Part shown: positions 2,313-62,504 of the stretch, piece after piece
Layout: every line of letters begins with the position of its first letter
Position numbering within the stretch: position 1 is the stretch's first letter
Origin: Mytilus galloprovincialis
Taxonomy: Eukaryota; Mollusca; Bivalvia; Mytilida; Mytilidae
Reading direction: 5' to 3'
Assembly: GCF_965363235.1 (NCBI RefSeq)
Contig: NC_134851.1
Span: forward strand, 26,900,847 to 26,964,846
Length of the DNA stretch: 64,000 bases
The notes under the pieces: generated by a model
Databases searched by the model: none
The model's input: only the letters and a program-made list of their open reading frames with translations
What the model was told of the DNA's origin: nothing
Translations under genes and position numbers: made by a program

Positions 2313-2680
2313 CTGGATTAACGGCATGTACTGCATCATATACATCTGGGAACAGAATGAAGTGTACACAAGTAGTATCAGCTCATGGTCTGCCCAATCC
2401 TCCTCCTTATAATAGCGTAGTTTTTAGTATTGCAAAAACTTGATTTTATCACGTTCTCGTTAATATACTATCGAAAGATATGAAAATATTTTATATTAAA
2501 TTAAATGGACGTAATTTGTCACGAACTTACTCTCACTGGGGCATTTCTAATGATGATGACGGGAAATTCACAGGCTCAACATCAGTTTTTATCAAAGCTG
2601 CAGTCAAAGATGGTATAACAATTGAAGGATCCGATGGAAATTTACAACAGGGAAGCTGTCTTACAGTGTTAAAACTTTAA
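2313..2680 (+). pseudogene. C1q-domain terminal exon with an in-frame stop
   Basis: After a good acceptor (tttttatattatag) a phase-1 exon opens with GLTACTASYTSG and ends GSCLTVLKL followed by TAA, the usual start and end of the globular C1q domain in bivalve C1q proteins. The middle carries YIKLNGRNLSRTYSHWG and TGSTSVFIKAAVKDGI. The whole 122-codon exon is in one frame and is broken only by a TGA at 2441-2443, near residue 43 of the exon. No upstream leader or coiled-coil exon was found on the + strand in the window. It is therefore either a decayed last exon or a solitary duplicated exon. It faces the intact C1q gene at 5-12.5 kb tail to tail. Confidence 0.72.
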
Positions 2681-5362: not shown

Positions 5363-8300
5363 CTATCATGTGCATTAGGAAATACTACCAAGAGGAGTCA
5401 GGAAATACAATTATATCAGAATTTTTGTGACAATTACTATTGAAATTGTTCTGAGGAAACTGTAACTTACCTCTCTGTGAATGCTCATTCACTATCGCAT
5501 TGAGTTTGTTTGAAATTGATCCCTGAGATGTGGATAGAGAGTTTATTCTCCTGTCTAGATTTGCTATGTTCTTTTCCATCAATAAATCTGAAATAAAGAT
5601 ATTTTGATATTTTGTCATTCATAGATGATCAACATGCTTTTTTCTTCTTCTGTTTAGCGTATTTGTTACTCATTTCATTGAGTTTCCGTGTAAAACGTAT
5701 AAGCTTTTATATTAAAGTGTAAATGTGCATAAATTTCAAATTTCCCATGCCACTTTGTCGGGTTTTTTTATCCCTCCAAAGAGCAAGAAATGACAACTCT
5801 GCATGGTAGAATAGGTTTTCCTACACTACTTTATTGATACCCACATTACACAAATGTCCTTACAAAATCCTGACCAGTAGGGAGCAATTATGTGTTGATA
5901 TTAATTATTATTGATGTGCTCATGTGAATGAATAAACAGTTTTATGGTCTTCGATGCTCTTCAACTGCGTAATGTGTTTGGCCTTTTAACAATGTTTCAT
6001 AAGGGTATCACTGATGATTCAATTGAAGATTGTGAATATTACACAACTGCATGAGGAAAGAAACTGTGATTGTATCTATTGAAATCTTTATATTGTTTGC
6101 CTTTTAACTTTCAAATCGGATTAATACCGCCCGGTTGTACCACTGTCACTAAAAGAGGGACGAAAGATACCAAAGGGACAGTCAAACTCATAAATATAAA
6201 ACAAACTGACAACGCCATGGCTAAAAATGAAAAAGACAAACAGCAAAACAATAGTACACACGACACAACATAGAAAACTAAAGAATAAACAACACGAACC
6301 CCACCAAAAACTAGGGGTGATCTCAGGTGCTCCGGAAGGGTAAGCAGATCCTGCTCCACATGTGGCACCCGTCGTGTTGCTTATGTGATTACAAATCCGG
6401 TAAATAGTCTAATTCGGTAGGTCATATTCATGAAAGGGAAGGGGATTGTAGTTACGACGTAAGGAGCATATCCGATATCATTTCTGAAACGGTTATTCCA
6501 TAACGGTCAACCAACTCGATTTGATTCGTTATAGGCTTGATAGTGCCTTTTGTTTTCAAAGTTCTCTATATCGGTCTAGCATGTCTAAAACATATAAATA
6601 TGATGCCAAATACATGTAATGTTGTCGTCTCAATGAGTAACACATACTTACCCTTTTTTGTTAAAGTTTGAACAGTTGTGTTGATGAGCTTATCTGTCAC
6701 ATTCTGGGAAATACCAAGCCTACTCATCTTATCATTCAAACCTTTTATCTCCGAATCCGTTAATAAACCTGTAATCATAATAATGGTTCCTTTTGTAGAA
6801 TAATTTAAATTATCAATACATGTATCATAAAACTGCAATTGTTGTGCTATAAATCCTCAACCTCACGATGCCTGAAGTATGGTTATACTATAACTTAATA
6901 ACATGTTTTAAAAAACAGACAAAGGTTGTCAAGGGAACAAGAACTACTGACCCTTTCGAAGCACATGGGTTCATCTCGATTTTGTTCAATGGTCGTTTCG
7001 CTAAGCCTCTGTTTTTACTATTTCTTTTTATTGTCATTTGTCTGTTTGTAGTTTTAATGTATGTTCGTAGTTTTGTCTTTTATATTTACTTTGTATTTTC
7101 TATTGTTCCCATCTTAACCACTGCTATTTTCGCTTTAATCATGCTAGTGGTCTTTTTAACTTATATTTGACTAACTTTCACAGTTTCCGGTACCATATTT
7201 CTTTCGTCGACAATATAATAATAGATATTGTTGTAAAGTTTTTACTACGAGTGCTTACTGCTAAAAACAGTACTTTTCATTAACCTTTTACTTACTGGAA
7301 TATATGTCTCTTGATATTATAATGGAATGTCTTGGTAAACATAGTGCTAAACTGTCCAAAACGAAAGTCGAAATGATAACGTATATACATAAAGGTTAAC
7401 TCGATGAAATTGTTTTGATCGTATGACCATTGAAAATTTTACTGAGAAAAGTTACAACAGCGTTTCATATAAATGTGGATACTGACGTATACATCATGTG
7501 CACAGATAAAAAACCACAAAAAATCAATGGTTCATATTTGATTGCTATTATTCATCTCAAAATCACAATGAGACCTTCAACATGGTGCAAAAATTTTCTC
7601 ATATCATATTAGGTTTAAGCGGTCACTAGCACTAGTTGTTTGGTGAATTAAATTCGGAAGTAGTGTTTGCCTGTTAAATGCACTAAAAGATTGATAGTAG
7701 AAAACAAATGAAAAAGAGGCTACATAAGAGTATACATAAGAAAATGCCTTCTTGTTTTAATTTTCCTGGGAGTTTTTTTTATTATCTTGCTTTGTACAAT
7801 TTTGTGAGTATAATTAATGTACCAATACATGGTAGGGATCTTCTTCATGACTCTCAATAAAACTTACCCTTTGTAGTTAAACCAAGAACGGTTGTGTTGA
7901 CATCTATCATTTTATCATTCAAACGTTTTATCTTTTTATCTATTGTTGATCCTGTAATACGAAAAGAATAGTTCAGATTATAAGAATATGTAACATGTTT
8001 TATATGTCAATATACTGTTGACTCTCGTTATCTTTGTACTATAAAATATCTGTTATATCAATGTAAAACATACGTTCTAAATGATAAATGTCTATCGTAT
8101 TAGATACTCACTTTTTTATCCTGATACTAGTTTGTTTCTACTAATGTATTTTGGAACTGTTAGCCATCACTGATAATGGTTGCTACCGTGGCTACATGCA
8201 TGATGTAAAATCTCAAATTTAGGACCATCGTCATGCCTGATTTTTTTTTGTCAGTACGGATATATTATATGCATTAAAGTAATTGAAACTTCTCTTTTTC

Positions 8301-11300
8301 CAATCTTACAAGTGAAGAAAGTTTTTATGATAACGATTTATCTACATATATCCATAAAGGTTATGTGGTACTATTTTATAACATAGCAATCGAGAATGTT
8401 TTTCTTATTAATTGCCATGCCTTACGAAATCAAATCTTACCGTTATATATGTCGGTAAGTTGATGTTTGGCAAGACTTATATCCTTGTTATTCAACATAG
8501 TCAAGTTGTAAAGAGCACGAAAGTCCTCACTCCTTGGCTTGACTATAGTACGGTGACCAAGTAAGGAAAAGTCGCTTATTTAAGGAGTTTAATTGTCATT
8601 CGGACTATACGCCTATAAATCACAGTATTGGTAGTTCAAAGGTTAAACTTAACATTTTGACTTGTCGTCATAAAATCGTACGGTGCAATTTTCGTAAAAT
8701 GGGCTTTGAAGTACGTTAATTAACTTGAACGAAAAATCGACTAAGAAAAGTTTTGAGATCAACATTGTAAAATAACATCCGTGATATGATTTCTGTTATT
8801 ATTTACATTGTTCTTACACCTTATTCATATTATTTTAACGATTTCAAAGAAAGTTTAGCAAAATTAATTCGTTATTAAAGAGTTTTTGTAAAAGTTTAAG
8901 ACTACGAATACTTTGCATTTAATAGAGTACGTTCCAATTTAATTTCATGATTTTTTAACGCAAAATGTAAAATAATTAACATTTATATGTTATTTCATAC
9001 ATTTGTACCTTTATTAATCAATAATGTCAAATTCATTTGTCTCAGAAGCACTATTTCAGCAATTCAAGCCAGACAAAATTCATAACGCTCATATGACGGA
9101 GCTATTCGAAGCTCATATACAGCCTCTTATAGATACATATACGCTATTGAGATGTGATGTATTACTTATATTTACATACTGGGATATGTTCCCTGAAGCA
9201 GTAGACATTTAGCTGTCAAATGTTAGAGCAGAACGAGAGGGAAATTGGTCTCTTCCTTGAGATCGTCATATCAAATGTAAAATTATATTTTTGTAACCAA
9301 CCGTACTTCACGAAGGTGGATGCCATTTTACATACTCGATATGCTTCAATTTTCTGTGAACATTTGATCACCTTTTATAGATGGCTACTTTGCTTTTTAG
9401 ACAGATTCCTGGACATTTTAAAAGTACTATGACATGGCAACAGAAAAGACCATTATAAAAGCCTCAAGGGGATTAGGTGGCACTGTAGGCATAACAATTC
9501 GAAAGTCTGCGCTTGTTAGATGGGCCCTTACTAGACATTTTATAGAATCCATTAGTCGTGTTATACTGAAAAGGGATGGAAATGCTGAAAATTATGCAAA
9601 TTCACAGTAAGAAACAAAGCCAACAGCAATGAACAGAGATGAAGAACATGTTATTGCCATTTTGAACCATCTAAATGATCCATGACTGATCCCTTTGGTG
9701 TGGAATCCCACCCTCAATGTCTTATCAATATCTCTTTTCAAATGCATGCTTCAAGACATATTCGAGGTTCTTTGCACACAGTTGTCGAGGAAGGCTGGAA
9801 AATGCCTAAACATTTTATCATTAGTGCTCTTTCTTAAGATCACAAGGAGTTTTTATAGTCCAATATCAAAGTCAAACACAAACCTGAAAAATAAATCGGG
9901 GGAAATACTTTCAGGTCGCATAAATCCATAACTTGTAATTAGACGTGCACTAATTTCGGCAAAATGTAGAGATGATGTTATCATAGAACATGTGTTGTCG
10001 CACCCATTCCATTATCCCCTTTTCAAAATGACGGCACCATGAGAAAATCATGCAAGTCGGATTTTGTGAAGCAATTCGAATCTTAAGTCTCTTGTGCACT
10101 TTCCCTACCTTCCTTTATATCATCGCTCACAACTTACATAAGAGATGGTATGGCATTGGTTCAATTTATAAATGCTAAGAAAGGTAAAACATGCGGCGAC
10201 CTTGCAGCTTACTATTAAAAAAATATGTCCCAATGAATTTCTATGGCGCACATAGTAGCACATGTTTTTGACCGCTACGACACGAACAACTCTATAAAGT
10301 CTGCCGAAAGGGAACGCCGCACAGAGACTACAGCTTCCATCAAAGTGTATCAGATTATAGAGTGGAGAAGTATTCCTGACTGGAAAACCTTGACAAATCC
10401 GATAAGATTCCACCTGATGTGAGCTTTACATAGTCAGAACGTTTGAAACTTAGTTATTTATACCAACACTGTTCATGGCTGTCGTAACTTGTTCAGCACT
10501 CAAGAGAAGGCCTATACCCCATGCCTTAAACTTTGACACGGAGTTAAGGGAAATGTGAAAGAGTGGAAGAACAATCATACAGACCTCTTATACAATTGTA
10601 ATTGTTTTATGTGTTCGCTACTATAAAAATAGGACACATACAAGCGAGTTGTGGTTGTAGATGTGGAACATTAGCAGTGTAAATGATGGGCGGAGATTTT
10701 CACCCATTCAATAACTATGTGTCTGTAATTCCCCAACAATTTGTAAACTATTGCCTGGTGCACATGTACTTACCGGATGCGACGCAACTTCGTCTCTGTT
10801 TGGAGTAGGTATACAAACTGTCTACAAGACTTCGAAGGACACGCATGACTATTTCAGTTGTGTTTAGAGCTTCGGTAATATTGACAATGATGAAGCTCTT
10901 GTTTTGGCATGAAAGATAATTTCAAAGGTTTATGATCAGAACTATCTCTTTAAAACCACTCCATCATAATAATTATTCAAATTTACCATAAATAAAGGCA
11001 ACAGTAGTATACCGCTGTTCAAAACATAAGTAAGATGTAAGTTTATAGTCAGGTTACCTTCCTGCGAGACGGCACTGAAACAGTATGTTTTACGTACTTC
11101 GTTTTAAACTAAAAATTTGAAACGCATTACACATTGCTAAACCCCTATCAGGTCACCTTTAGAATACGGTTGGCGAGAGTAAAATGATTCATTACACCCC
11201 GTGTATTTTAAAAGGCATATTTCAGCAGAATTCTTGCAGGATCTTATGTCTTCATTGAAGGAAAATCTGCATGTGAAAGAGTCATGTGTTTGTTCACTAC

Positions 11301-12514
11301 AAAACCTTACATGTCCGGGGCTTTGGTCCTGTAAAGGGTCAGAATTATGTAGCATTTCAAATCATGTTCCTTGACAATTAACCAGAAGATATAATTCTGT
11401 TGTGTGGATCTCTTTGTTTGGAATATTGAATTGTAACTATTTTCGAATATTTGAGTGCCTTTTAGTTTTAATGAATTTCATGAATGGTCTTATGCAATAT
11501 ATGCCTTCATGACAGAAGGATGCAGGTAAAAATAATATTCATCATTTATTCATGAGGTTGGATGTTAGCCGGCAAGGTAACTACAGTAAATTTAACAGAA
11601 TATGTGTTGATCTTGTGTAATAGAACAAATATTTGAAAAACGCCAATTTTCAAAATAAATCGATTTCTTTTTCATTTTTTTTCTAACATTTTCGAAATGA
11701 TTCATTGAAAATTGATATAAGAAAACGTATTTATCTAGAATTTAACCTAAATTGTTGTATATTTCTTCAAATTTTGAAAGTATAGAAGAAGAAAAAATAA
11801 AAACAGAATTTGATCTTTGACCTCATTTTATGCAAAACTGTTACCACATTTCTTTTTGACGACATCGATATTTCAATAGTACTCATTTTTCCGAATCCAA
11901 TGATATATAATATAGCCATAAAGTATGTTTGACGATTAAATCTAAAAAATACTGGGTCTGGTCACCGTACTACTAGTTGTTTTTAACATATTTATTGCGT
12001 TATTTGTTTCCTGCAGACCGTTTGCAACATCCAAATTCTTTACTTGCTTTAGACTTTCTACTTCTTGATTTAGTTTATTACTGTCTATTTTAATTGCGAT
12101 GTTTTCGTTCAGCAATCTACTATAGTTCTGTTCCAAAACGGCCACTTTAGTATGTAGTTGTGTTATCTCAGCGTTCGTGGTCTGCAGACGACTATCAAAT
12201 GTATGTTGCATTGAAGTGAGATTTTCTAGACGATAAATATATGGTTGAAGGTAAATTGACATATTTTTAAGTTGTTGTCCACCATTATAATTCGACGCAT
12301 CTACTTTTGTCTGAAGTGTTGCAACAATTTGCTCTAACTGATGGCGTACCTGCTTTTCCTCGGTCAACGAATTCATCAATTGCGCATACTGACTTGTGGT
12401 TATATAGTGATTTTCACCATTTGGACCGACAGTACTACTATCCAGCAGAAATTTAAAGCAGCCATGGTAAAGCACGGATAAAGCTAATAACTTGGAAGCC
12501 CAAAAAATCAACAT
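5028..12514 (-). CDS. secreted coiled-coil C1q-domain protein, six exons
   Basis: Hand-assembled minus-strand gene: 12514-11974, 8542-8441, 7951-7868, 6768-6652, 5587-5471, 5362-5028. All five introns are phase 1 with GT-AG ends, giving 1,296 nt or 431 residues. Residues 1 to about 24 form a hydrophobic signal peptide (MLIFWASKLLALSVLYHG). Residues 40-320 are a heptad-rich coiled coil with several N-x-T/S sites. Residues 321-431 form a C1q domain ending SCLTIVQL. Bivalve proteins of this type are secreted, trimerise through C1q and the coiled coil, and often act as pattern-recognition lectins; that role is inferred from the family. Start chosen because this ATG precedes the signal peptide in the long open exon. 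Intron 1 coincides with a terminal-repeat DNA element. Family C and AT-rich sequence fill the other introns. Confidence 0.72.
5471..5587 (-). CDS. C1q gene exon 5: coiled-coil segment
   Basis: 117 nt, phase 1 to phase 1, donor AGAG|GTAAGT, acceptor TTTCAG. Encodes LLMEKNIANLDRRINSLSTS and QGSISNKLNAIVNEHSQR. Same length as exon 4, consistent with a modular stalk. Confidence 0.72.
6150..6545 (+). repeat. dispersed repeat family C, copy 2 (intron 4 of the C1q gene)
   Basis: Long copy: 'gagggacgaaagataccaaa', 'ccatggctaaaaatgaaaaa', 'aacacgaaccccaccaaaaa', 'ggtgctccggaagggtaagc', 'cacatgtggcacccgtcgtg', then a tail with 'aacggtcaaccaactcg'. Small open frames inside it are not conserved and are not called. 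Confidence 0.65.
6652..6768 (-). CDS. C1q gene exon 4: coiled-coil segment
   Basis: 117 nt, phase 1 to phase 1, donor AAGG|GTAAGT, acceptor TACAG. Encodes LLTDSEIKGLNDKMSRLGIS and NVTDKLINTTVQTLTKK. Heptad-like spacing of I, L, M and V residues fits a continuing coiled coil. Confidence 0.72.
7868..7951 (-). CDS. C1q gene exon 3: coiled-coil segment
   Basis: 84 nt, phase 1 to phase 1, donor AAGG|GTAAGT, acceptor ACAG. Encodes STIDKKIKRLNDKMIDVN followed by TTVLGLTTK. It resembles exon 4 (LNDKM and N-TTV-x-x-LT-K-K/G in both), so the two look like an old exon duplication. Confidence 0.7.
8441..8542 (-). CDS. C1q gene exon 2: coiled-coil segment
   Basis: 102 nt, phase 1 to phase 1. Reads SEDFRALYNLTMLNNKDISL and on to HQLTDIYN. 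The donor is ACG|GTAAGA. The acceptor CTATAG ends at 8543 and sits in the target-site duplication at the edge of the element that fills intron 1, after a pyrimidine-rich run. Confidence 0.65.
8546..11972 (+). mobile_element. 3.4 kb DNA element with 14-bp terminal inverted repeats, forming C1q intron 1
   Basis: Perfect terminal inverted repeats: TAGTACGGTGACCA at 8546-8559 and its reverse complement at 11959-11972. Both ends are flanked by CTA (8543-8545 and 11973-11975), a likely 3-bp target duplication. The interior holds a worn + strand reading frame (see 9024-11480). The terminal repeats look better kept than the interior. The superfamily cannot be fixed by eye; a 3-bp duplication occurs in PIF/Harbinger, CACTA and Zator, but no DDE catalytic block was recognised. 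Confidence 0.7.
9024..11480 (+). pseudogene. broken element-encoded protein of an uncharacterised animal family
   Basis: Read in the + direction, fragments in several frames recall a long protein I know as a repeated uncharacterised open frame in cnidarian, bivalve and fish genomes: FTYWDMFPEAVDI near 9170, MATEKTIIKASRG near 9432, RDEEHVIAILNHLNDP near 9640, SFYSPISKSN near 9850, and HVLTGCDATSSLFGVG near 10760. The last block lies in what looks like a nuclease-fold C-terminal half in the intact relatives. The copy is heavily broken and cannot make one protein. It is antisense to the C1q gene. Family assignment is from memory. Confidence 0.55.
11974..12514 (-). CDS. C1q gene exon 1: signal peptide and coiled coil
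   Basis: Encodes residues 1-180. Hydrophobic leader, then a long coiled coil (YAQLMNSLTEEKQVRHQLEQ onwards; NEVESLKQ-like heptads near the end). The open frame runs 10 codons beyond the proposed donor, into the inverted repeat of the intron 1 element. Two GT sites (11973 and 11970) both give phase 1; I chose the outer. Confidence 0.75.
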
Positions 12515-12814: not shown

Positions 12815-14345
12815 GAGAATGGAAATGGGGAATGTGACAAAGAGACAACAACCCGACCATAGAAATAAACACAACAGCAGAAGGTCACCAACAGGTCTTG
12901 AATGTAGCGAGAAATTCCCACACCCGGAGGCGTCCTTCAACTGGCCCCTAAACAAATATATTCTAGTTCAGTGATAATGAACGCCATACTAATTTCCAAA
13001 TTGTACACAAGAAACTAAAATTAAAATAATACAGCGGGGTTAAACATGTTTGTGATATCTCAACCCTCCCCCTATACCTCTAGCCAATGTAGAAAAGTAA
13101 ACGCATAACAATACGCACATTAAAATTCAGTTCAAGAGAAGTCCGAGTCTGATGTCAGAAGATGTAACCAAAGAAAATAAACAAAATGACAATAAAACAT
13201 AAATAACAACAGACTACTAGCAGTTACCTGACATGCCAGCTTCAATTAGACTGACTGAAAGATTATGATTTCATCATATGAACATCAGGCACAATCCCGT
13301 TAGGGGTTTAGTATCATACCATCATAACACATATGAGAAGAACTTAACCCGTGTCATGCCAACAACTGGTTTTTGAATACATGTGTTTAGTTCCGATACA
13401 AAGACCCTATAAGTGAATCAATATTAACGCCAAAATATGCAATCTTTAATGACCTGACAACAGTATCGTAACTATATCCCTTCTTAAAATAAGTCTATTC
13501 AAAGGTTTTGTTAGTTTTTGAGGTGAATACTGACACCTTTGTGCTTTATAAAGAATATTTCCATAAAAAATTGGATGTGAAATACATGAACGTATAAGAA
13601 GTCTGCATGTTGAGCTATATTTACGAATGATGTCCTTATACCGATGATAAAATTTAGTAAATGTTTTTACTAGTTTGTGATATCGGAAACCCTGGTGTAA
13701 TAATTTTTCAGTAATACATAAATTTCTTTCGTTAAAATCTAAAACATTGTAACATACACGAGCGAATCGTACAAGTTGAGATACATAAACACCGTAAGAT
13801 GGTGACAAGGGAACGTCACCATCTAAAAATGGATAATTAACGATAGGAAATGAAAAATCATCTCTTTTATCATAAATTTTAGTATTCAGCTTTCCGTTAG
13901 TGATATAGATATCAAGATCGAGGAAAGGGCAGTGGTCATTGTTAGTATTAGCTTTATTTAAAGTAAGTTCAACAGGATAAATTTCTTTAATATACATACT
14001 GAAGTCGTCATTATTGAGAGCCAAAATATCATCCAAATATCTAAAAGTATTATTAAATTTGTTTATCAGATGTTGTTTCGATGGGTCTTTGCTTTTTTTT
14101 GTCATAAATTGTAACTCATAGCAATACCAGGTCCGCAATAAGTGGTGCACAGTTAGTCCCCATTGGAATTCCGATAATCTGACGATATACGGAATCCCCA
14201 AAGCGAACAAAAATGTTATCTAGTAAAAATTCAAGGGCATATATAGTATCAAAGCATGTCCAATTGACATAGTTTTTTTGTTTATTGCTACTAAAAAATG
14301 ACCTTAAAGAGTTTGAACATATTTTAGTTTGAAGAAGACAGGTTA
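12815..14345 (-). mobile_element. Penelope-like retroelement, 3' part
   Basis: Minus-strand remnant: a reverse transcriptase C-terminal half (13446-14210) followed by a tail at 12815-13445 that matches families at 4549 and 33990. A second, more worn copy with the same order lies at 33975-35700, which supports treating tail and RT as one element. No GIY-YIG endonuclease was recognised. Confidence 0.6.
13446..14210 (-). CDS. reverse transcriptase fragment (Penelope-like), 254 codons open
   Basis: Carries the RT active-site box as YLDD in NTFRYLDDILALNNDDF (residues 58-61 of the open frame), then FLDLDIYITNGKLNTKIYDK and RDDFSFPIVNYPF, then YGVYVSQLVRFARVC and the 'thumb-like' YHKLVKTFTKFYHRY. 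This set is typical of the YLDD reverse transcriptases abundant in mussels and other aquatic animals, which I place with Penelope-like elements. Just upstream, fragments in another frame recall the preceding RT block, so the 5' side is broken. Mobile-element gene, not host. Confidence 0.68.
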   Translation of the reverse strand: MFALGIPYIVRLSEFQWGLTVHHLLRTWYCYELQFMTKKSKDPSKQHLINKFNNTFRYLDDILALNNDDFSMYIKEIYPVELTLNKANTNNDHCPFLDLDIYITNGKLNTKIYDKRDDFSFPIVNYPFLDGDVPLSPSYGVYVSQLVRFARVCYNVLDFNERNLCITEKLLHQGFRYHKLVKTFTKFYHRYKDIIRKYSSTCRLLIRSCISHPIFYGNILYKAQRCQYSPQKLTKPLNRLILRRDIVTILLSGH

Positions 14346-28087: not shown

Positions 28088-31000
28088 TACATTTAAATGT
28101 TGTGTCGTTGTTCTCCTCTTATATTTAATGCGTTTCCCTCAGTTTTAGTTGTTTTGTTTTTTGTCCATGGATTTATGAGTTTTGAACAGCGGTATACTTC
28201 TGTTGCCTTTATTTCACATTACGTAATGATGTTTTGATATAACTAAATATGGAATAGTCATTACATAATGATTTTTCGATATTACATGATATGGTTTCGT
28301 ATTGACTTGATATAGTTTTGTCATTAGTTATTTGATGATAATGAACAGCATATATAAAGGTTGAAACTGAAAACAAATGCGGTCACTTCAATTTTAGACT
28401 TAACACATCTGCAGTGACGTTATTGTGGCATATTTCATAGATTAAAAAAACCCATTTTAAACTAAATTTAAGCGTCTTCACGACCATATCAGTTCAAATA
28501 TTTTACATTTACAAATGTAAACGACTTCAGACGACACTTATGTGTTTTAAAGATATCAAAAATCTTTCATCAGATGTAATTAACTTAAGCCGAAATAAGC
28601 ACCACCGGACATCTTACTTTACTAAGTGATATTTTTTTTTTATTTCATTCGTTAGCACAAAAATGAGCTTTCATTTGAATTTTGGTGTAAAACACATGAT
28701 GAACTGCTCTCACACGCGCAAGAACATATATCTACGGTAAGTTTTCGAAATTCACATTTATGATACGTGGGAAATATAACATTCTTACATCTCAAAAAAA
28801 TAAATAACCACCAAACCTAAGTGGTACAAGACGGATCGTCTTGAAATTAAAAGTTTAATGAAACCATTCATAATTATGTTATAAAAAAGCTACAAAAAGT
28901 CGTTTGAGAAGACAATTATCATGGACGGCACATTAAATGACCTAATCCAATCCTTAAAGACACATATTTTGTTTATACATGTGTAATAATTTATATCTCT
29001 TATTGGTAGCATTGCACAAAACGTCATTTATGTGTACGCTAAAAGAATCAATAAGATAAGTTGTATTCAATTAATTAAGTAATATAAAAATTTCATTAAT
29101 AATCATAACTCTATTGTATGTATACCTTTCCTGGGAACCAAGCAGTGATTGTTTGCATTTCGTGTTCAATGCCATGTAGAGGACATATCCATACTTTGCT
29201 GAATATTTTTAGCTGGCTGACGTCAACATGGTCAAGGATACAAGGGTTATCTGATGAGTTACAACATATTCTGGTTATAAAGGATGCATCACTGATTTGA
29301 TTCTTGTCGCTGCTGGTTCTTATATACAACTGACTTATTCTCTCCAAGGCAGATGTTAAACATTCATTGATGCTGGAAGCCAAATCCCTCTTTATTACTG
29401 CGTTTGTTCTAGCATGAACAAGACGGGCAATTATAGTCCCATCTTCACAAATAATGTACATATCCAAAGAAGGATTAATAGTAAAAACCCCTGATCTATG
29501 GAACAGCATGTCCTTATTTGTCTCACCGTATGTCTTTACCGCCCAGACATATAGACAGTAACTTAGAAATCTAAAGGATAATGCAGGAGGTATCATCAGT
29601 GATGAAGATTGAAAGGCTATTGCAATACTTCTTCTTGTGAAGCCATCTGACTTAAGGTATCCAGAATCATCTGTTGCTCTGACCATACTTGCAATATAGT
29701 AGAAATCTGCAGGTATGCGTTCGTTGTCTGAATCATACCTCTTTGGTTCTACCAAAATATCCAGATGGGTCATAACTTTCTGTAAATATTCCTTGTTGTT
29801 GTAAAATGTACGATATTTCTTTTTCTTCCAAACTGTTTGGATATCATTTTTTGATACCACTCCTTGCTTGCCCATCACATCCCACAAATTTTGTCTTTGT
29901 TTGTCTCCTTTATATAACCTTCTATCAGTAACAATAGATTTAAAGGCATCAATGAGAAGTGTGGGTGACAAAATTATATGTTTGTCCAATTTGTTTTCAT
30001 CAAAGTACAAAATCTTGCCTATTGAGTGCTGAAACTTCAAAAATACCTTTAACTCAGTTTCCGAAAGAGGTCTAATACGTTGCGCTGAGTTAATTGTATT
30101 TAGATGCTCTAGAGTAATCAGCGGAATGTTACGTCTGATAAGTGATGCAAATTCTAATTCTAGAGGGATGAAGCATTTCGGTAGAGATTCACCCCATGTT
30201 GGTTGATTTTCTGATTCTCTGATGATAACAGCTTTGATCTTCTGCATCTCTGGGTCATGTTCGTCTTTCGCGTTTACGAATATCTGATCATCAATCACCA
30301 AATGTTGCATTAATGGCGTTGGTGCAAACAACTCTCTGATTTCTGCGAAAAGTCTTAGTCTTTGGCTGTCAACCTCATTCTTAAAAATACAATGGAATGA
30401 TATAAACTGATTATCAGATATGTTAATCACCTGAGAAAAAATTGTTGGTTGATGCGTTTATAATAAGTCTTACCAGTCATCGATTATTTTTGATGTAGAA
30501 TGTTAATAGAATTTTTGTGTAAAAAGACGTGTTTTTTTAAAGTTTGAAAATTTAGTTTGATTCTTTAGATTCCTTAGATGAGCATAGTAAACATATAATC
30601 ACAGATCAAACTGCACCGATTGCAAATGTACAATTCCAAAATTGCTTTAAACCAAAAGTTTGAATATGATGCAACACTTATCTAAAGCATTTGTATTAAT
30701 AATAGAAGTTAAGATACCAAATTCTTGAAAAGATCGAAAACATAGAAAAGAGAAGGGTTTGAAATTCAACAGAAATCCAGGAAAAGTTTTTGACAAAATT
30801 CAGATGCAACCTTGGTCAAACTTCAGTTATACAGATTGTAAACTTAAGTTTTACATCAACATGTGATTTGATGTAAACCAGCAACATAATATTGAATATC
30901 ACTCTCAACAAGTAAGGATTAATTATATATAATTTTAAACACACACAAATTAAATTCCATTGTATTTGCGTCACATTAACTTGTGTTACTAAGACCAAAA

Positions 31001-34000
31001 CGCATATTTCCCCTAATAGATATCAATCCTAGTAATGACTTCTTCGGGGTAGTCCATAAATGTGTAAATACCAATTTATATAATAATTGAAACACACACA
31101 CTGTTTCCGCCATAAACAAGAAGTTTAGATTCAATCACTGTTTATCATTTTTTTTTATCAAACTATGATTACGTTGAAAATGAAAAAAAAACCCTCACCA
31201 TTCATATTACCAAAGATTTTGTTCACATACATATACTTACTGCCTTAACCTTGTCCTTATGCGTTAGAACAACCATAATTTTCGGAAAACCATTAATACT
31301 CCCCTTACAGTAGGTTACAATTGTGTTTATCCAGAATAATAGATAATCTGTCAAAGTAAACAAATAAAAAAGTGTAAATGATTGAAGACGAATTCCTGAG
31401 GAGTATCTGAATTGTAATTAATAAAAAAACTTAATTATTCACTCTTTCATCAAGTTCAAAGATGGACATAACTCATATGATGTATGCATTTAATATTTTA
31501 TGAAGCATATTGTACAGATTTCTATTGAAAATAAAATTATGTATTTATATACACACCTTTTGATGTTTTATGACCAGTCTTTCCTGGGAGGTACTGATCC
31601 ACAGGACAGGGGTCGTCAAGTTTTCTACTTCCATCCAATACAATCATGTAAATTGCTCTATATGTTAAAAATGTCTGATGAGTTGAATAGAAAACATCCT
31701 GTCCTCCAAAATCCCAGATAATTATTGGTGCTATCTTTTTACTATGTAACTTCTTCCTCCCAACTGTAGAAGACATTTTTGATAAATTTTCCTTTGTAAT
31801 TGACACTTTGACTTCTCCTACTTTTTTGGTAACGCCAAAAAAGGTTTTAAGCCTTCTAATCAGTCCAGGTTTAGTGACAATACGTGTGTGCCTGTCACCA
31901 GGGAAATCTGACTGTAAAGACGCATCATCTGATTCATTTAATTTTGTCTCAAAAGGAGTTTTTCTGTATTTGATAGAATCCGTACTTTCTCGGCCAGTTT
32001 CGTAATCATGATCAATGATTTCGTTATGATTGTTGATACCACCTGCACTGTTTTCGTCAAAAACTTAGCTTCCTAATGGTCTGCTGAAACTAGACATTTT
32101 CTTTTCTATACCTGACGGATACATGTCATCGGTGTATTGTGATTTCGTGTTTTGTTTATGCATATGGTCTATTGGCCTGTCGAAAACAAGTTGATTGATT
32201 GGTGCTTTATCTTGTGTTTCGTCTTCTTTTAAAAAGGATCTACTAATGATGATTTCTTCTAGGGAAAAATCTACAATCAGATAATATTTAAAAAGATTTT
32301 CAAATACATGTACACATGATACTTTAGAATTCTGGTCCAACAAGATAAACTATCAGTTAGTCAAAAAAGGAATGTAACTTATTTTTACCACTGAATATTT
32401 TGTGCTGTATTAGGACATTGCTTTATATCTTAAAATTAAAGCTAAACTTAAATGTATGTCTACATCGCATCCGATCAACAAAAATTTACAAAACATATCG
32501 ATACATTAGAAGACGATTACCATAACTGTCATAGTTTTCCATGTGTACAAGCTATACATCAGCATGTAATCCCAAGTGCTAAATTCTATAAAAACACCAA
32601 TATATGCATGATATGTAAACAACTAAAGAAATTTTTGCTGCAATGAAATGTCGAAATAATGTTACAACTGTCAGTTTAAAGGAAAACTTTTCTTTAAGAG
32701 CATCTTTCTGAAATTACCAGATGTGACGTAATATTATCTGGTGGTATTACACCAATAGATTTTTTTGGTTGAATAAAATTAATGTATTTGTTTACCACTT
32801 TGTCTTGCTTATAAGATTAATTTAATTTTCACATTTTCTCAAAGTTTCACATTTTAGTCCAATCATTTAAAAATTTTATATAGTTTTCACGTATGTATGC
32901 AAGAAATGTGTTAATAAATGAGCAACTGAGTATTCAAGCTTTATAAACTATAAAATTTAACTGATATGGAAATAAATTGAATTTACGCCCCACATTCGAG
33001 AGAGGTATACAAAACTTCCCTATAAGTGAATATTTTTTTATTGGGGTTTCCGAAAAAAATATTAACTTATAATTATGTATTTATAAGGGTGTTACTAATA
33101 GATTTTTTTTCTACTCAGGCAAAACATAAGAAATGAGAAAAATGTGCTGGCTTATATTCTTATATTCATGGTAGAATTCTATTTTAAGGCATTTTTCTCT
33201 TAAACTATGTTTTTGAGACTCAATCAACTCATAATATTTCATTATGTAATATATGACATAAATAATATGACATTTTAACAATGCCAAATGTGCATATGCA
33301 ACATCCAATTTTAGGTAATGTACATGTACCACCAGATTGATCTTTCTAATCTAAATTGTTCAGAATTTATCTGTGTTTCATATAAAGAAATACTTGGCAT
33401 GAATAAAGCTTGATCCTGTCAAGTGCAACAGTCAAATTTCACAAAAATTCGTTGTATAAAAAAATACATGTAATAATCATCACTGAAGGAAACAAATTTA
33501 AGAATTTCACATTTTTTTTTCTTGTGTACCAGCTTTAAATAACTATAAAACCTCAAGTTTTCTTTAAAATGTTATACAAAACACCAAATGATAACACAAA
33601 TTAATGGTAATATGCAGCACCTCAGTTTTAAGTTAATGAGTTTACTGCTATGAAATGTAGGATAAATTTCCTACAACTGTCAAATTCAGGTGAATATTTT
33701 TTTCAACCAACTTTCGTGGAAGTATTCTCAAGTTTTGTCAAAATAAGTTCAATAGTTTGATAAAAGTCTAGTATACTGTAAGATGACATCTACAGCGATT
33801 CGAGTAATATTTCTACGAAAATATCATAGCAATATAACCAATCAATAATCAAATAGTTATCACAAATGCCTACAACAGTTGAATATGATGCAGAATAAAT
33901 ACAACAGTAGTATACCGGTGATCAGAAGTCAGAAATCGTTAAAGGGTTACAAACTAACAAGATGAATATATCAAATTAATAATGAATGTTGAGAATGTGT

Positions 34001-37232: not shown

Positions 37233-37266
<34 letters not shown>

Positions 37267-40200
37267 ATTCATGACCACACTGTCGAAAAGGAAATCGAAA
37301 TCACTGGAGCTGAGTAAACCAAATGAGCCAATAGACAGAAAGAATTCCGAAACGCGAAAAAGAGGACATGTGCGGATTTACAATATAATGCAGATAAAAA
37401 ACAGACATAGACGTTTGAGCTGGTAATCAGTCATTTTTGGTAAGCATACAAAGATATTTCCCATTAAATTAGTTTCACACATCATTCAATTGCTCCAAGT
37501 TGATGAAAGCCATGGAATTACAGAAACACTCGAGAATCACAAAGCAAAATGTACAAAATTGTCAAAACAAAATCTCAATATATTTTGTTGGAAAAAACAA
37601 AAACACACTCTTGAAGGCCAAGATGAGTCACTAATTGAAAGTACTAGTACAGAATGACCGATTCGATATTCATGCTGCTCTTCTGTTTAGACCCAATTTT
37701 ATCCTATTCTTGTCATAAATTCTTGGACTGAATTAGAATTCACAATGTTAGTGTAGACTTATTGCATCAACGTTCCTGATCATGTCCCGTTGAGTTTATA
37801 CGAGTATACCAGCTTTAGTTTTATCAGTTTTTATATTTTATATAAGAATTCATCATTATGCTAGTAGGTGATTCAGATGTCGAAAATCGATTTTAACTAG
37901 TAGTAGCTGTTAAAATAAGCTGTATAAGAAATAAATACCTGTATAACCTGTTCTTTCATATGTTCCTGAATAAACAAAATATCTATTCAGTAAGTATCAT
38001 ACACCTTTAGTCAAAATCATTTTTAACAAAACAAGATTTAAAATGACGCATTTAAAAGAAATACGAGACTATCTCTAGGTTGGAATAGCAGTTATTTGTT
38101 CTAAAACAACATAACTACTTGTTTAATTCAACTGGCACTGTTTACCAGATTGGTGAAAAAACCCATGAATCTCCGACAAAATATATAACGTAAATATGAT
38201 GACTTATTACTACACAAAATATGTCTTACGTTAAGAAGCTAATCAATGATAACAGGACAAATGTTTTGTACACCAATAGACTCATCAGGGACGCTTGAAT
38301 AAAAGAAACTCACTATGTTAAAGAAAAGAGGGACGAAAAATACAAGAGGTGCGAATGATATCCGAGGGACAGTCAATCTCATATATTGAAAATAAACTGA
38401 CAATGCCATGGCTTAAAATAGAAAAATAAACAGACACATAACAGTACGGAAGACACAACACGGAAAACTAAAGACTAAGCAACACGAACCCCACCAAACA
38501 CTGTTGGTGATTTCAGGTGCTACAACAAAGTAGGAAAATAAATGAGCACCGAAGAAACCCACACGTGTTTTTTTTTTTTTTAGAAAACACAGCTAAGGTA
38601 ATCTATTCCGCAGGGTTGAACATCCATTATATTTCCAACTATTTGAATCTCCGTCAACAGTCTATTTTAGAATGTGACCATATCAAACATATCTATATTA
38701 AGTTGTGTCACCACAGACGTAGTGATTGAAAACAGAAGTTTCAAATATCTTTAATGTCTTAAATCGTCACATAAGAAACTATGAACTTGATATTTTAGAA
38801 AATCGAAGAAACAAAGGTGATTTCAGGTGCTACAACAAAGTAGGAAAATAAATGAGCACCGAAGAAACCCACACGTGTTTTTTTTTTTAGAAAACACAGC
38901 TAAGGTAATCTATTCCTCAGGGTTGAACATCCATTATATTTCCAACTATTTGAATCTCCGTCAACAGTCTATTTTAGAATATGACCATATCAAGCATATC
39001 TTTATTAAGTTGTGTCACCACAGACGTAGTGATTGAAAACAGAAGTTTAAAATATCTTTAATGTCTTAAATCGTCACATAAGAAACTATGAACTTGATAT
39101 TTTAGAAAATCGAAGAAACAAAGGTGATTAAGCTTCGTATTATATCGTATTGACAAATTATCTATCCCGAAAGCTATAATCACCACTAACGATTAATTAA
39201 TTTCATATTATTATAGTTTCTAACACCGTATTTTTTTATTTTCGTTTTTTTTTTCACTTTATCGTGTCGAAAAGAAAACATTTAGTATCGAAATCACTGG
39301 AGCTGAGCAAACCAAATGAGCCAATGGACAGAAAGAATACCGAAACGCGAAAAGGAGGACATGTGCGGATTTACAATATAATGCAGATAAAAAACAGACA
39401 TAGACGTTTGAGCTGGTAATCAGTCATTTTTGGTAAGCATACAAAGATATTTCCCATTAAATTAGTTTCACTCATCATTTAATTGCTCCAAGTTGATGAA
39501 GGCCATGGAATTACAGAAACACTCGAGAATCACAAAGCAAAATGTACAAAATTGTCAAAACAAAATCTCAATATATTTTGTTGGAAAAAACAAAAACACA
39601 CTCTTGAAGGCCAAGATGAGTCATTAATTGAAAGTACTAGTACAGAATGACCAATTCGATATTCAAGCTGCTCTTCTGTTTAGACCCAATTTTATCCTAT
39701 TATTGTCATAAATTCTTGGACTGAATTAGAATCCACAATGTTAGTGTAGACTTATTGCATCAACGTTCCTGATCATGTCCCGTTGAGTTTATACGAGTAT
39801 ACCAGCTTTAGTTTTATCAGTTTTTATATTCTATATAAGAATTCATTATAGTGGTAGTAGGTGATTCAGATGTCGAAAATCGATTTTAACTAGTAGTAAC
39901 TGTTAAAATAAGCTGTATAAGAAATAAATACCTGTATAACCTGTCCTTTCATATGTTCCTGAATAAACAAAATATCTATTCAGTAAGTATCATACATGCA
40001 CACCTTTAGTCAAAATCATTTTTTAACAAAACAAGATTTAAAATGACGCATTTAAAAGAAATATGAGACTATCTGTAGTTTGGAATAGCAGTTATTTGTT
40101 CTAAAACAACATAACTACTTGTTTAATTCAACTGGCACTGTTTACCAGATTGGTGAAAAAAAACCATGAATCTCCGACAAAATATATAACGTAAATATGA

Positions 40201-43200
40201 TGACTTATTACTACACAAAATATGTCTTTCGTTAGGAAGCTAATCAATGATAACAGGACAAATGTTTTGTACACCAATAGACTCATCAGGGACGCTTGAA
40301 TAAAAGAAACTCACTATGTTAAAGAAAAGAGGGACGAAAAATACAAGAGGTACGAATGATATCCGAGGGACAGTCAATCTCATATATTGAAAATAAACTG
40401 ACAATGCCATGGCTAAGAATAGCAAAAAAACAGACACATAATAGTACGGAAGACAAAACACAGAAAACTAAAGACTAATCAACACGAACCCCACCAAAAC
40501 ATTGGTAGTGATTTCAGGTGCTCCAATAAAGTACGAAATAAATGAGCACCGAAGAAACCCACACGTGTTTTTTTTTTAGAAAACACAGCTAAGGTAATCC
40601 ATTCCTCAGGGTTGAACATCCGTAATATTTCCAATTATATGAATCTCCGTCAACAGTCTATTTTAGAATATAACCATATCATGCATATCTATATTAAGTT
40701 GTGTCACCACAGACGTAGTAATTGAAAACAGAAGTTTAAAATATCTTTAATGTCTTAAATCGTCACATAAGAAACTATGAACTTGATATTTTAGAAAATC
40801 GAAGAAACAAAGGTGATTAAGCTTCGTATTATATCGTATTGACAAATTATCTATCCCAAAAGCTATAATCACCACTAACGATTAATTAATTTCATATTAT
40901 TATAGTTTCTAACACCGTATTTTTTTATTTTCGTTTTTTTTTTTAACTTTATCGTGTCGAAAAGAAAACATTTAGTATCGAAATCACTGGAGCTGAGCAA
41001 ACCAAATGAGCCAATGGACAGAAAGAATTCCGAAACGCGAAAAAGAGGACATGTGCGGATTTACAATATAATGCAAATATAAAACAGACATAGACGTTTG
41101 AGCTGGTAATCAGTCATTTTTGGTAAGCATACAAAAATATTTCCCATTAAATTAGTTTCACACATCATTCAATTGCTCCAAGTTGATGAAGGCCATGTAA
41201 TTACAGAAACACTCCAGAATCACAAAGCAAAATGTACAAAATTGTCAAATTAAAATCTCAATATATTTTGTTGGAAAAAACAAAAACACACTCTTGAAGG
41301 CCAAGATGAGTCACTAATTGAAAGTACTAGTACAGAATGACTGATTCGATATTCAAGCTGCTCTTCTGTTTAGACCCAATTTTATCCTATTCTTGTCATA
41401 AATTCTTGGACTGAATTAGAATCCACAATGTTAATGTAGACTTATTGCATCAACGTTCCTGATCATGTCCCGTTGAGTTTATACGAGTATACCAGCTTTA
41501 GTTTTATCAGTTTTTATATTTTATATAAGAATTCATTATTAAGCTAGTAGGTGATTCAGATGTCGAAAATCGATTTTAAATAGTTGTAACTGTTAAAATA
41601 AGCTGTATAAGTAATAAATACCTGTATAACCTGTCCTTTCATATGTTCCTGAATAAACAAAATATCTATTCGGTAAGTATCATACATGCACACCTTTAGT
41701 CAAAATCATAATTTAACAAAACAAGATTTAAAATGACGCATTTAAAAGAAATACGAGACTATCTCTAGGTTGGATTAGCAGTTATTTGTTCTAAAACAAC
41801 ATAACTACTTGTTTAATTCAACTGGCACTGTTTACCAGATTGGTGGAAAAAACTCATGAATCACCGACAAAATATCTAACGTAAATATGATGACTTATTA
41901 CTACAAAAAATATGTTTTTCGTTAAGAAACTAATCAATGATAACAGGACAATCGTTTTGTACACCAATAGACTCATCAGGGACGCTTGAATAAAATAAAC
42001 TCACTATGTTAAAGAAAAGAGGGACGAAAAATACAAGAGGTACGAAGGATATCCGAGGGACAGTCAATCTGATATATTGAAAATAAACTGACAATGCCAT
42101 GGCTAAAAGTTAAAAAAAATAAACAGACACATAATAGTACGGAAAACACAACACAGAAAACTAAAGACTAAGCAACACGAACCCCACCAAACACTGGTGG
42201 TGATTTCAGGTGCTCCAATAAAGTACGAAATGAATGAGCACCGAAGAAACCCACACGTGTTTTTTTTTAGAAAACACAGCTAAGATAATATATTCCTCAG
42301 GGTTGAACATCCGTAATATTTCCAACTATTTGAATCTGCGTCAACAGTCTATTTTAGAATATGACCATATCATGCATACCTATATTAAGTTGTGTCACCA
42401 TAGACGTAGTGATTGAAAACAGAAGTTTAAAATATCTTTAATGTCTTAAATCGTCACATAAGAAACTATGAACTTGATATTTTAGAAAATCGAAAAAACA
42501 AAGGTGATTGAGCTTCGTATTATATCGTATTGACAAATTATCTATCCCGAAAGCTATAATCATCACTAACGATTAATTAATTTCATATTATTATAGTTTC
42601 TAACACCGTATTTTTTTATTTTCGTTTTTTTTTTTAACTTTATCGTGTCGAAAAGGAAAAACATGTAAGTATCGAAATCACTGGAGCTGAGTAAACCAAA
42701 TGAGCCAATGGACAGAAAGAATTCCGAAACGCGAAAAAGAGGACATGTGCGGATTTACAATATAATGCAAATATAAAACAGACATAGACGTTTGAGCTGG
42801 TAATCAGTCATTTTTGGTAAGCATACAAAGATATTTCCCATTAAATTAGTTTCACACATCATTCAATTGCTCCAAGTTGATGAAGGCCATGGAATTACAG
42901 AAACACTCCAGAATCACAAAGCAAAATGTACAAAATTGTCAAATTAAAATCTCAATATATTTTGTTGGAAAAAACAAAAACATACTCTTGAAGGCCAAGA
43001 TGAGTCACTAATTGAAAGTACTAGTACATAATGACTGATTCGATATTCAAGCTGCTCTTCTGTTTAGACCCAATTTTATCCTATTCTTGTCATAAATTCT
43101 TGGACTGAATTAGAATCCACAATGTTAATGTAGACTTATTGCATCAACGTTCCTGATCATGTCCCGTTGAGTTTATACGAGTATACCAGCTTTAGTTTTA

Positions 43201-46200
43201 TCAGTTTTTATATTTTATATAAGAATTCATTATTAAGCTAGTAGGTGATTCAGATGTCGAAAATCGATTTTAACTAGTAGTAACTGTTAAAATAAGCTGT
43301 ATAAGAAATAAATACCTGTATAACCTGTCCTTTCATCTGTTCCTGAATAAACAAAATATCTATTCAGTAAGTATCATACATGCACACCTTTAGTCAAAAT
43401 CATAATTTAACAGAACAAGATTTAAAATGACGCATTTAAAAGAAATACGAGACTATCTCTAGGTTGGATTAGCAGTTGTTTGTTCTAAAACAACATAACT
43501 ACTTGTTTAATTCAACTGGCACTGTTTACCAGATTGGGAGAAAAAACCCATGAATCTCCGACAAAATATATAACGTAAATATGATGACTTATTACTACAC
43601 AAAATATGTCTTTCGTTAAGAAACTAATCAATGATAACAGGACAATCGTTTTGTACACCAATAGACTCATCAGGGACGCTTGAATAAAAGAAACTCACTA
43701 TGTTAATGAAAAGAGGGACGAAAAATACAAGAGGTACGAAGGATATCCGAGGGACAGTCAATCTCATATATTGAAAATAAACTGACAATGCCATGGCTAA
43801 AAATTAAAAAAAATAAACAGACACATAATAGTACGGAAAACACAACACAGAAAACTAAAGACTAAGCCACACGAACCCCACAAAACACTGGTGGTGATTT
43901 CAGGTGCTCCAATAAAATACGAAATAAATTAGCACCGAAGAAACCCACACGTGTTTTTTTTTAGAAAACACAGCTAAGATAATCTATTCCTCAGGGTTGA
44001 ACATCCGTAATATTTCCAACTATTTGAATCTCCGTCAACAGTCTATTTTAGAATATGACCATATCATGCATATCTATATTAAGTTATGTCACCATAGACG
44101 TAGTGATTGCAAACAGAAGTTTAAAATATCTTTAATGTCTTAAATCGTCACATAAGAAACTATGAACTTGATATTTTAGAAAATCGAAGAAACAAAGGTG
44201 ATTGAGCTTCGTATTATATCGTATTGACAAATTATCTATCCCGAAAGCTATAATCACCACTAACGATTAATTAATTTCATATTATTATAGTTTCTAACAC
44301 CGTATTTTTTTGTTTTCGTTTTTTTTTAACTTTATCGTGTTAACAAAAGTAGATTGGTTTAAAAAAAAGTCATGCTTTCTGTCAAAACCATAAGTTTTAA
44401 GATATGTAAGTGTATACCTTTGCTACTTGTGCGTATGTTACTTGTTCTTCTGAATAGTCACACAGGTCTGCATTTCCCTAGAATAAAAGAAAAACAAATA
44501 AATATGTTGAGTAGGAGACGAATGTCCATTTGTCCGTAGTCAAAAAACTTTCAAATTTCTAAATTTGTCTTACTTTGAAAGAATGAATATTAAAAGAGAA
44601 GACACATGTTCTGAAATTAGTTCACGAAGTTTTACATATAGACTTTTTACATAGCATTTATCGAACCATTAAAGTATAATTAAAGTTGTAAACAAGGCTA
44701 TGCAAATGCAACAAAACTATACAGTATTTGCTTTTATATATCGAAGAGAATTATAGCATCGCTAGTAATTTGTCAAGTTTGGATTGGTTTAACGCCGACA
44801 CGTAGTGTTCCCATATGGATCCCTAGGCGGATAGTAAATTTTAGCCCAAAACTGCAAAAAGTGAAAATCCTTTTCCTTCTAAAATAATAGACAACACAGA
44901 TGCAAACTGTTGAAATTCGGTTTGAATTGATTTTGTAACAAGAACCATCTGATAGAAGGGGTGCTTACTGATATCAAGTACAATAATTTGCCGGCTCACC
45001 GTTTACAGCTGTCAAATTGACTAAGATTTTTGTTAACATGTTACTTTCTTGCAACATTGCAGCGTTGTGTGGACGACATGGAGTCTGTTTGGATCTCTGA
45101 CATCACGTCTATAATTTTCCTATACTTATATTATTTGTCGATAATTTCTAGCCTAAGGCCTTTTTATATCGCCAATCGCATCACCAAAACGTTCTTCATT
45201 TTCAGATTGAAAAAAGCAATTTCTGTTTATAAGACGGCAAGAACATTATAATGGCTACCACGTTTAACACCAACAACATCATTTTTGAATTATCAAAAAT
45301 TTTGCTTAAAATCTGTAAAGACATATTCGAGAGCTTTCTGTACTCAAAAGTAAGCAAGTTGCATCAGTTGTCTTTGCCATTCTACGTTTACTGCTTATAA
45401 TTCTCTATGAAATACCTTGGGAAATATCATCTCTATCCAACCGCAAAACAAAAACGACCATATGTCTGTATAAAGAATGAAATAACAGTGTAGCTACGGA
45501 CATTCATTGGCGCTTTATAATCTCCAATTGACTGGGACAGAGTATGTGAACGTTCATCTGTAATGCCTACCGCTCATGACGTACTTATTATAGACATTTA
45601 AATTGTGCGGTCACCAAAGGTTCTTAAAGCCTAAATACAATAATTTTAAAAAACAGGAATTACCGTTATGAATTAATTTATATTTAGTACGTAAACGTTC
45701 TTTTCTTGTGTATTTTTGCATATTTTGATAATCAATTTCCTAATATTATTATATCGCATGTTCTTTCAGAAAAAAAATGAATTAATTGGTTTAGAAGTTA
45801 GAATGCATGTGTTGATTGATTATCTTTTTTTCGGACGTCTAATCGATTTAACAATTGCAGTTGTTGAATTATGTCATCTTTTAACTTTAATCACGTCTAA
45901 AATCTTTTTTAAGAACGAATGCTTAAAAATTATGCAAATACAAAATGAAGACAGAATAATTTTCTGCCCTGTCTTTTTCTTACTTTCAATTTAATGGACA
46001 GTAAAAAAACACACTATAAGAATTTACGTTATTTTATAGGTCAAATGTATAATTTGGCGTATATAGGAATCTTGAAATTATTTGGATGCTTTGTGTCTTG
46101 ATCGAATTTTTATTGATGCCATCGCGTATGTTTTAAATAAGAAAAAAGGGGTAGAAAAAAGCCCCAGATGACTTTTAAAAATGTTTATATCATCAAAAAA

Positions 46201-61790: not shown

Positions 61791-62504
61791 CATACTGGGA
61801 GAAGAAATTTAACGTATATTGATTCAGAAAATCAATTGACCTTTGACCCCTAGCACGTGTCGGACTTTGATGACAATACAATTTTTTTCTGCCAAAATTT
61901 CTTCATCCTTAATGCCAATTGAATATACATGTACAAAAAGTGTAAAAATGTTGATAACTTAGATACATTGTCTTTAAAACTATGTTTTCTGTTTACTTAA
62001 GCTTATTTTGTAGTTATCAGCTTTTTCAAATGATTTAAAAAGGGAATAAACAGAGAGAACAGTAATGAGATTGAAAAACTGAAAAAAATAAATTTGACTA
62101 AAACTGAACATATTTAGCAGGGTAGTGGTTATTCTAATATTACTTAAAGTATGTTTATGATTGTAACTGATTTGGTGGAAATGACAAAAAAATAAGCATT
62201 TAAAACTGGAGAACACAAAGGAGAAAAGGAGGAGGAAAAAAAGGGGGTACGGTCGGACCACTTTTTTTAACTTCTGATTTCGGAAACGAAGTATATCATC
62301 ATAGGGATATTTGGATTTAATTTAATCGAAATCGGGATTTATGTGTATTTACGTCCAGTAAATCAGGGTTTTCATTTATCGGGTATTAGTATTGTAATAC
62401 TGAAAAGTAACCCTCCCAAAGCTTCTGACTTTAATCCCCAAAAATGTGTTTGATTTTGGCGTTACACAATCTTGTTTCAATGCAATCTACAAAGTTATAA
62501 TAAT
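61791..62504. other. non-coding stretch
   Basis: AT-rich. Nothing recognisable except a purine-rich run (ggagaaaaggaggaggaaaa) at about 62219. Confidence 0.45.

What the first reader, a model, noticed from the sequence alone, without database searches (positions are those of the whole stretch)
8541..11975. A whole DNA transposon appears to be intron 1 of the C1q gene, with splice sites at its target duplication
The 14-bp inverted termini (8546-8559, 11959-11972) sit at both edges of the intron that the coding phases require. On the minus strand the 3-bp duplication TAG supplies the G of the donor at one end (A|GTAGTA) and the AG of the acceptor at the other (CTATAG|TC). A pyrimidine-rich stretch inside the element precedes the acceptor. 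Splicing there joins exons 1 and 2 in frame (..KTTI KPRSEDFRALYN..). Simple excision leaving one CTA would put them out of frame within a few codons. This matches the route by which DNA-transposon 'introners' create introns, but here with a 3.4 kb element.
Basis: partly seen in the sequence, partly recalled or inferred. Interest (0 to 1): 0.8.

Follow-up and report, generated by a model that had tools for sequence, protein, structure and literature searches.

The report
Whole jumping gene acting as intron
A worn-out 3.4 kb jumping gene seems to sit right between two coding pieces of one gene, so the gene could be read through only if the cell cuts the jumping gene out of the message like an intron; whether it does so has not been shown.

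Summary
Exact 14-bp inverted termini (8546-8559, 11959-11972), flanked by CTA, lie at the inner edges of two minus-strand coding pieces. Coding signal ends and resumes near the element's ends. In the rebuilt empty site the acceptor positions at the start of exon 2 score poorly, which argues against an older intron there. That the transposon became an intron is plausible but unproven: no RNA, ortholog or second copy could be reached.

Four corrections. (1) The termini also fit a 2-bp TA duplication with 12-bp TIRs. Of the two parses only this gives an open ancestral exon (KTTSIVKPRSEDF); CTA gives a frameshift and stop, which counts against intron gain. (3) The splice-site fit is weak evidence: the element placed at 50 TA sites gives an in-frame GT-AG pair at 15, and 3 (the real site included) reach the real site's score. 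(4) Pfam and PDB searches do not confirm C1q.

Main rival: a gene broken by the insertion. Spliced transposons and introners are known.

The parts
8546..8559 (+). left terminal inverted repeat TAGTACGGTGACCA (under the TA parse the TIR is 8548-8559 and TA 8546-8547 is the duplication)
11959..11972 (-). right terminal inverted repeat, exact complement (TA parse: TIR 11959-11970, TA 11971-11972)
8543..8545 (.). CTA, left copy of the possible 3-bp target duplication
11973..11975 (.). CTA, right copy of the possible 3-bp target duplication
9997..10338 (+). decayed TE-protein piece with 3 in-frame stops; matches a TE-associated protein family that I recalled from memory
10568..10831 (+). next decayed TE-protein piece, in another frame, 2 stops, LTGCD..GVG motif
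   Evidence: tblastn E 4.7e-05, (recalled query, same caveat)
10989..11025 (+). 37-bp piece shared with four other places in the window, probably part of an interspersed repeat that landed in the element
   Evidence: blastn 85-97% identity
11975..12514 (-). exon 1 of the host gene, 540 bp (the exact end depends on the donor); by eye an N-terminal hydrophobic stretch, then coiled-coil-like sequence
8441..8542 (-). exon 2, 102 bp, phase 1 at both ends, followed by a strong donor G|GTAAGA
7868..7951 (-). exon 3, 84 bp, phase 1-1
6652..6768 (-). exon 4, 117 bp, phase 1-1
5471..5587 (-). exon 5, 117 bp, phase 1-1
11965..11970 (-). better donor candidates in the TIR, named by first intron base: 11970 TA|GTACGG (3.46, phase 1) and 11965 ACG|GTGACC (6.54, phase 0)
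8537..8544 (-). acceptor candidates: ATAG|TC (first exon base 8542, score 2.21) and TCAAG|CC (first exon base 8537, score 0.86)

Best explanation
A cut-and-paste type DNA transposon of about 3.42 kb landed at a TA inside a once continuous coding exon, antisense to the gene. Pre-mRNA of that gene is now made whole by splicing the entire element out. The branch and pyrimidine region comes from the other end of the element. The AG comes from the target DNA, at 8543-8544 or 8538-8539. Shown: TIRs, flanking repeats, coding signal up to both ends, in-frame pairs. Inferred: the TA parse, the continuity of the ancestral exon, the TE nature of the decayed protein (recalled family), and that splicing happens.
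For: TIRs and flanks. The TA-empty site reads straight through as LDVANGLQETNNAINMLKTTSIVKPRSEDFRALYN. Exon-1 tail 12043-11975 has coding score 0.328, reached by about 1% of 1626 stop-free 23-codon stretches, and the signal falls at the TIR. In the empty site the acceptor positions 8542, 8537 and 8532 score -6.3 to -0.6; with the element present 8542 scores 2.21, so an older intron ending here is unlikely. Exons 1-2 (642 bp) and 3-5 (318 bp) join with no stop, while the two TE-protein pieces carry 5 stops and a frame change.
Against: No transcript evidence. The splice sites are weak beside the gene's other donors (9.0-12.0) and acceptors (3.8-10.7); 23% of window AGs score as well as acceptor 8542. 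In-frame pairs appear at 15 of 50 TA sites, 6 of 50 at 5.6 or more, 3 of 50 (real site included) at the real site's best; on exon 1 alone the other orientation does as well (11 of 39 each). The CTA parse, which explains the flanks without a coincidence, gives a frameshifted empty site. TA duplications are in general those of the IS630/Tc1/mariner group (PMC10045372, passage), and no such transposase was recognised (9 of the 20 ORFs of 50 aa or more inside the element were scanned). Introns 2-4 are phase 1 at both ends, as this one would be with acceptor 8542, which would also fit an old intron. The strongest donor (11965) is out of frame with the strongest acceptor (8542). TIRs are perfect although the interior looks decayed.
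Confidence: 0.47

Rival explanations
1. The insertion broke the gene. The element is not removed, or only poorly or out of frame, and this copy (or this allele) is a pseudogene; the GT and AG near the ends are chance.
For: Splice sites are weak and chance pairs are common (15 of 50 TA sites). The last exon has only a weak phase-1 acceptor (5362, score 0.21), and neither Pfam nor PDB recognises its domain. Perfect TIRs would fit a recent insertion (inference).
Against: No stop in exons 1-5 as joined; coding signal runs to both edges.
Confidence: 0.3
2. There was already a phase-1 intron between exons 1 and 2, and the transposon inserted in it; the flanking intron DNA is gone, or the true splice sites lie tens of bases away (donor 12018 or 12043).
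For: The three other junctions that could be checked on both sides (2-3, 3-4, 4-5) are phase 1 and exons 2-5 are symmetric. The CTA parse leaves the two coding pieces out of frame, as exons parted by an intron may be.
Against: The region those donors would remove scores as coding. The intron left in the empty site would be about 46-81 bp (my arithmetic from the coordinates), with acceptor positions at exon 2 scoring -6.3 to -0.6; the one good acceptor printed there (5.85, CTGCAG|GAAACA) lies upstream, within exon 1, and does not mark the start of exon 2. Matching flanks point to a clean insertion.
Confidence: 0.18
3. Exon 2 is not an exon; exon 1 joins exon 3 and the element simply sits in a long intron.
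For: Donor 12018 is phase 1, like exon 3's acceptor. Exon 2's coding score is only modest.
Against: Exon 2 is open, scores in the top 11% of stop-free stretches, is phase matched and ends in a donor in the top 0.84% of window GTs.
Confidence: 0.05

Closest known systems
Introners (PMC9860276: abstract, section 7 and passages seen)
   Same: Elements, many with TIRs and short target duplications, that make an intron where they insert, with splice sites from the element, the duplication or the neighbouring exon; small in-frame changes at the junction are also described there.
   Different: Introner family medians are 30-654 nt with 5 to more than 2,000 copies per genome; here 3.4 kb, one copy seen, and remains that look like its own protein. 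The paper reports introners in only two groups among animals and land plants, both animals.
Spliced plant transposons: CACTA TgmR* in soybean (PMC4219821, passages seen); maize Spm and Ac (mentioned there; more is recalled)
   Same: A large whole DNA transposon removed during splicing; the paper states that Spm and Ac ends sometimes mimic splice sites.
   Different: TgmR* lies inside an existing intron and is removed with it (RNA-seq shown). Here the splice sites would lie at the element's own edges.
sC1q-like type II genes of bivalves (PMC6835236, passages seen)
   Same: By eye, N-terminal secretion-type stretch and coiled-coil-like region before a C-terminal domain.
   Different: C1q domain not recognised by Pfam or PDB searches.

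Membership tests
Cut-and-paste DNA transposon | terminal inverted repeats | tested here: met
   14/14 bp
Cut-and-paste DNA transposon | target site duplication | tested here: met
   CTA/CTA or TA/TA; the length is ambiguous
Cut-and-paste DNA transposon | transposase gene | tested here: inconclusive
   9 of the 20 ORFs of 50 aa or more inside the element scanned against Pfam, none above a curated cut-off (weak: HTH_Tnp_IS1 E 0.035 for 10715-10867); a TE-associated family recalled from memory matches at E about 1e-5
Introner | inserted into an exon and spliced out, restoring the mRNA | tested here: inconclusive
   coding signal reaches the element and the exons can be joined in frame; no RNA
Introner | many similar copies at introns of the same genome | not testable with these tools
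   no genome held; no second copy in the 64 kb window
Introner | length in the described range (family medians 30-654 nt) | tested here: not met
   about 3,427 bp; PMC9860276 section 7
Academ superfamily (considered from memory) | XPG-type nuclease protein and 3-4 bp duplications (recalled) | not testable with these tools
   the AcademH paper is not held; a word search for Academ with XPG found 0 papers
C1q-domain-containing gene | C1q domain | tested here: inconclusive
   no C1q hit in Pfam for the last exon or its relative at 2444-2677, none in PDB, poor model with pLDDT 46.8; the relative is 33% identical

The most novel reading that the evidence does not exclude
If so, an insertion of this family that meets a nearby in-frame AG could make an intron, and large autonomous-type elements, not only short non-autonomous introners, can do this in animals.
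Probability: 0.38. Interest if true: 0.66.

Novelty: new variant of a known kind. Interest (0 to 1): 0.45.

Why it matters
How new introns arise is a long-standing question, and the 2022 survey found introners in only two animal groups (PMC9860276). Here both edges, both flanks and the empty site can be read, so one cDNA or one element-free allele would settle it. It also gives a testable rule: this element carries possible donors in its TIRs and needs a nearby in-frame AG from the target.

Tried and rejected
Searches for relatives of the element or gene gave nothing usable. DNA against phages: none. Protein against phages: none. TIR pattern in viral contigs: 37 exact single matches, assumed chance and not examined. 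Protein scans of viral contigs and genome contigs: none confirmed by tblastn. A 30-base stretch of the repeat core inside the element, in viral contigs: 0. TIR with up to 3 mismatches in the window: 6 places, the two TIRs and four with 3 mismatches, against 2.75 expected. Upstream donors 12018 and 12043 were set aside because that stretch scores as coding. The predicted structure of the last exon was too poor for a fold search. TIR length alone is not rare (63 of 1000 shuffles). No tRNA in the window.

The controls with the element at other TA sites used exon 1 alone (39 sites, 11 with a pair and 3 at 5.6 or more in each orientation) and then the continuous exon in the found orientation (50 sites). 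With a 3-bp duplication at all 579 positions tried, 236 gave a pair and 136 scored at least 5.6. The coding-score comparison set leaves out the host gene's own minus-strand stretches, and compares exon 2 (33 codons) with 23-codon stretches. Papers of which passages were seen but which gave little: PMC11782384, PMC10045372.
Full report
What is there. The two 14-bp termini TAGTACGGTGACCA (8546-8559 and, inverted, 11959-11972) are exact and flanked by CTA on both sides. In dinucleotide shuffles of the surrounding 4 kb, 63 of 1000 contain some exact 14-bp inverted repeat at least 500 bp apart, but only 1 of 3000 contained one with at least 7 G+C. The interior carries remains that look like a plus-strand TE protein. 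Two stretches (9997-10338 and 10568-10831) match, in order, a TE-associated protein family that I know only from memory (E 9.5e-06 and 4.7e-05 without composition correction; 5 stops and a change of frame; the best hit elsewhere in the window is E 0.28). Of the 20 ORFs of 50 aa or more inside the element, 9 were scanned against Pfam and none passed a curated cut-off; the ORF at 10715-10867 has a weak HTH_Tnp_IS1 match, E 0.035. A 37-bp repeat piece shared with four other places in the window lies at 10989-11025.

The host gene. On the minus strand, exon 1 (12514 to the element, 540 bp), exon 2 (8542-8441, 102 bp), exon 3 (7951-7868, 84 bp), exon 4 (6768-6652, 117 bp) and exon 5 (5587-5471, 117 bp) join without a stop. 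The donors of introns 2-5 are strong (9.0 to 12.0) and the acceptors of exons 3-5 score 3.8 to 10.7. The last exon has only a weak acceptor in the right phase (5362, score 0.21). A 33%-identical relative lies at 2444-2677 on the plus strand.

Do the exons abut the element? As far as sequence can say, yes. A model of base composition by codon position, trained on the first 471 bp of exon 1 and on exons 3-5, gives positive scores along exon 1 from 12124 to the TIR and negative ones inside it. In the exon-2 frame, four of the five windows starting at 8630-8570 are negative and one is 0.07, and the windows starting at 8555-8480 are positive. The exon-1 tail (12043-11975) scores 0.328 bits per codon, reached by about 1% of 1626 stop-free 23-codon stretches; exon 2 is less telling (0.129, 11%). 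This disfavours the upstream donors 12018 and 12043.

Which duplication? The outer parse is a 3-bp duplication CTA with 14-bp TIRs. Because the TIR begins with the palindrome TA, a second parse is equally exact: a 2-bp duplication TA with 12-bp TIRs GTACGGTGACCA, the outer CTA match then being a coincidence (about 0.02). Removing the element under the CTA parse gives KTTSQAKE* (frameshift and stop); under the TA parse it gives KTTSIVKPRSEDFRALYN, open through exon 2. So intron gain inside a working exon needs the TA parse or some later repair of frame. A frame match has about a one-in-three chance, so this is suggestive only. TA duplications are in general those of the IS630/Tc1/mariner group (PMC10045372, passage), and no such transposase was recognised here.

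Older intron? In the empty site the acceptor positions 8542, 8537 and 8532 score between -6.3 and -0.6 under either parse, with an A-rich stretch upstream; the further AGs printed in exon 2 score between -9.8 and -2.2. The only good acceptor printed (5.85) lies within exon 1, upstream of the insertion. With the element present, acceptor 8542 scores 2.21. An intron ending here before the insertion is therefore unlikely, unless intron DNA was lost later. For it stands that introns 2-4 are phase 1, as this one would be.

Splice sites now. 11970 TA|GTACGG: 3.46, top 11%. 11965 ACG|GTGACC: 6.54, top 3%. With acceptor 8542 the first two are in frame; 11965 was joined in frame with acceptor 8537. Placing the same element at 50 TA sites of the continuous exon gives an in-frame GT-AG pair near both edges at 15, of which 3 (the real site included) reach the real site's best sum of 7.39. 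On exon 1 alone, 11 of 39 TA sites have a pair in either orientation. The element thus brings much of what splicing needs wherever it lands, and the fit at this site is not by itself proof.

Verdict. I put 0.47 on a transposon that became an intron, 0.30 on a gene broken by it, 0.18 on an older intron and 0.05 on exon 2 being false. Closest known: introners (PMC9860276: abstract, section 7 and passages), described with median lengths of 30-654 nt and in only two animal groups; and spliced plant transposons (PMC4219821, passages). I saw no mollusc case in the listings of searches (15 of 178 papers listed; 10 of 9,326 listed; 1 paper), and the word mollus- does not occur in the main text of PMC9860276; that covers only part of the held open-access library. 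I do not file it as an introner: its length lies outside the described range and copy number could not be tested.

Noticed in passing
2444-2677 (+): Plus-strand relative of the host gene's last exon (33% identity, ends GSCLTVLKL like SSCLTIVQL), tail to tail with the gene; the open frame just upstream of it (2291-2440) ends in a stop.
   Followed up: partly
37238-44253: Tandem array of about four copies spaced about 1.69 kb (one spacing 2.0 kb); the ungapped stretches listed are 66-98% alike.
   Followed up: no
59243-61802: Long satellite-like array with spacing mostly 67 bp.
   Followed up: no
13446-14219 (-): 257-aa open frame with a YLDD motif that looks by eye like a reverse transcriptase fragment; Pfam gave no family above its cut-off.
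   Followed up: no
28179-28214, 33894-33927, 50414-50450, 56572-56607: Other copies of the 37-bp repeat core found inside the element.
   Followed up: no
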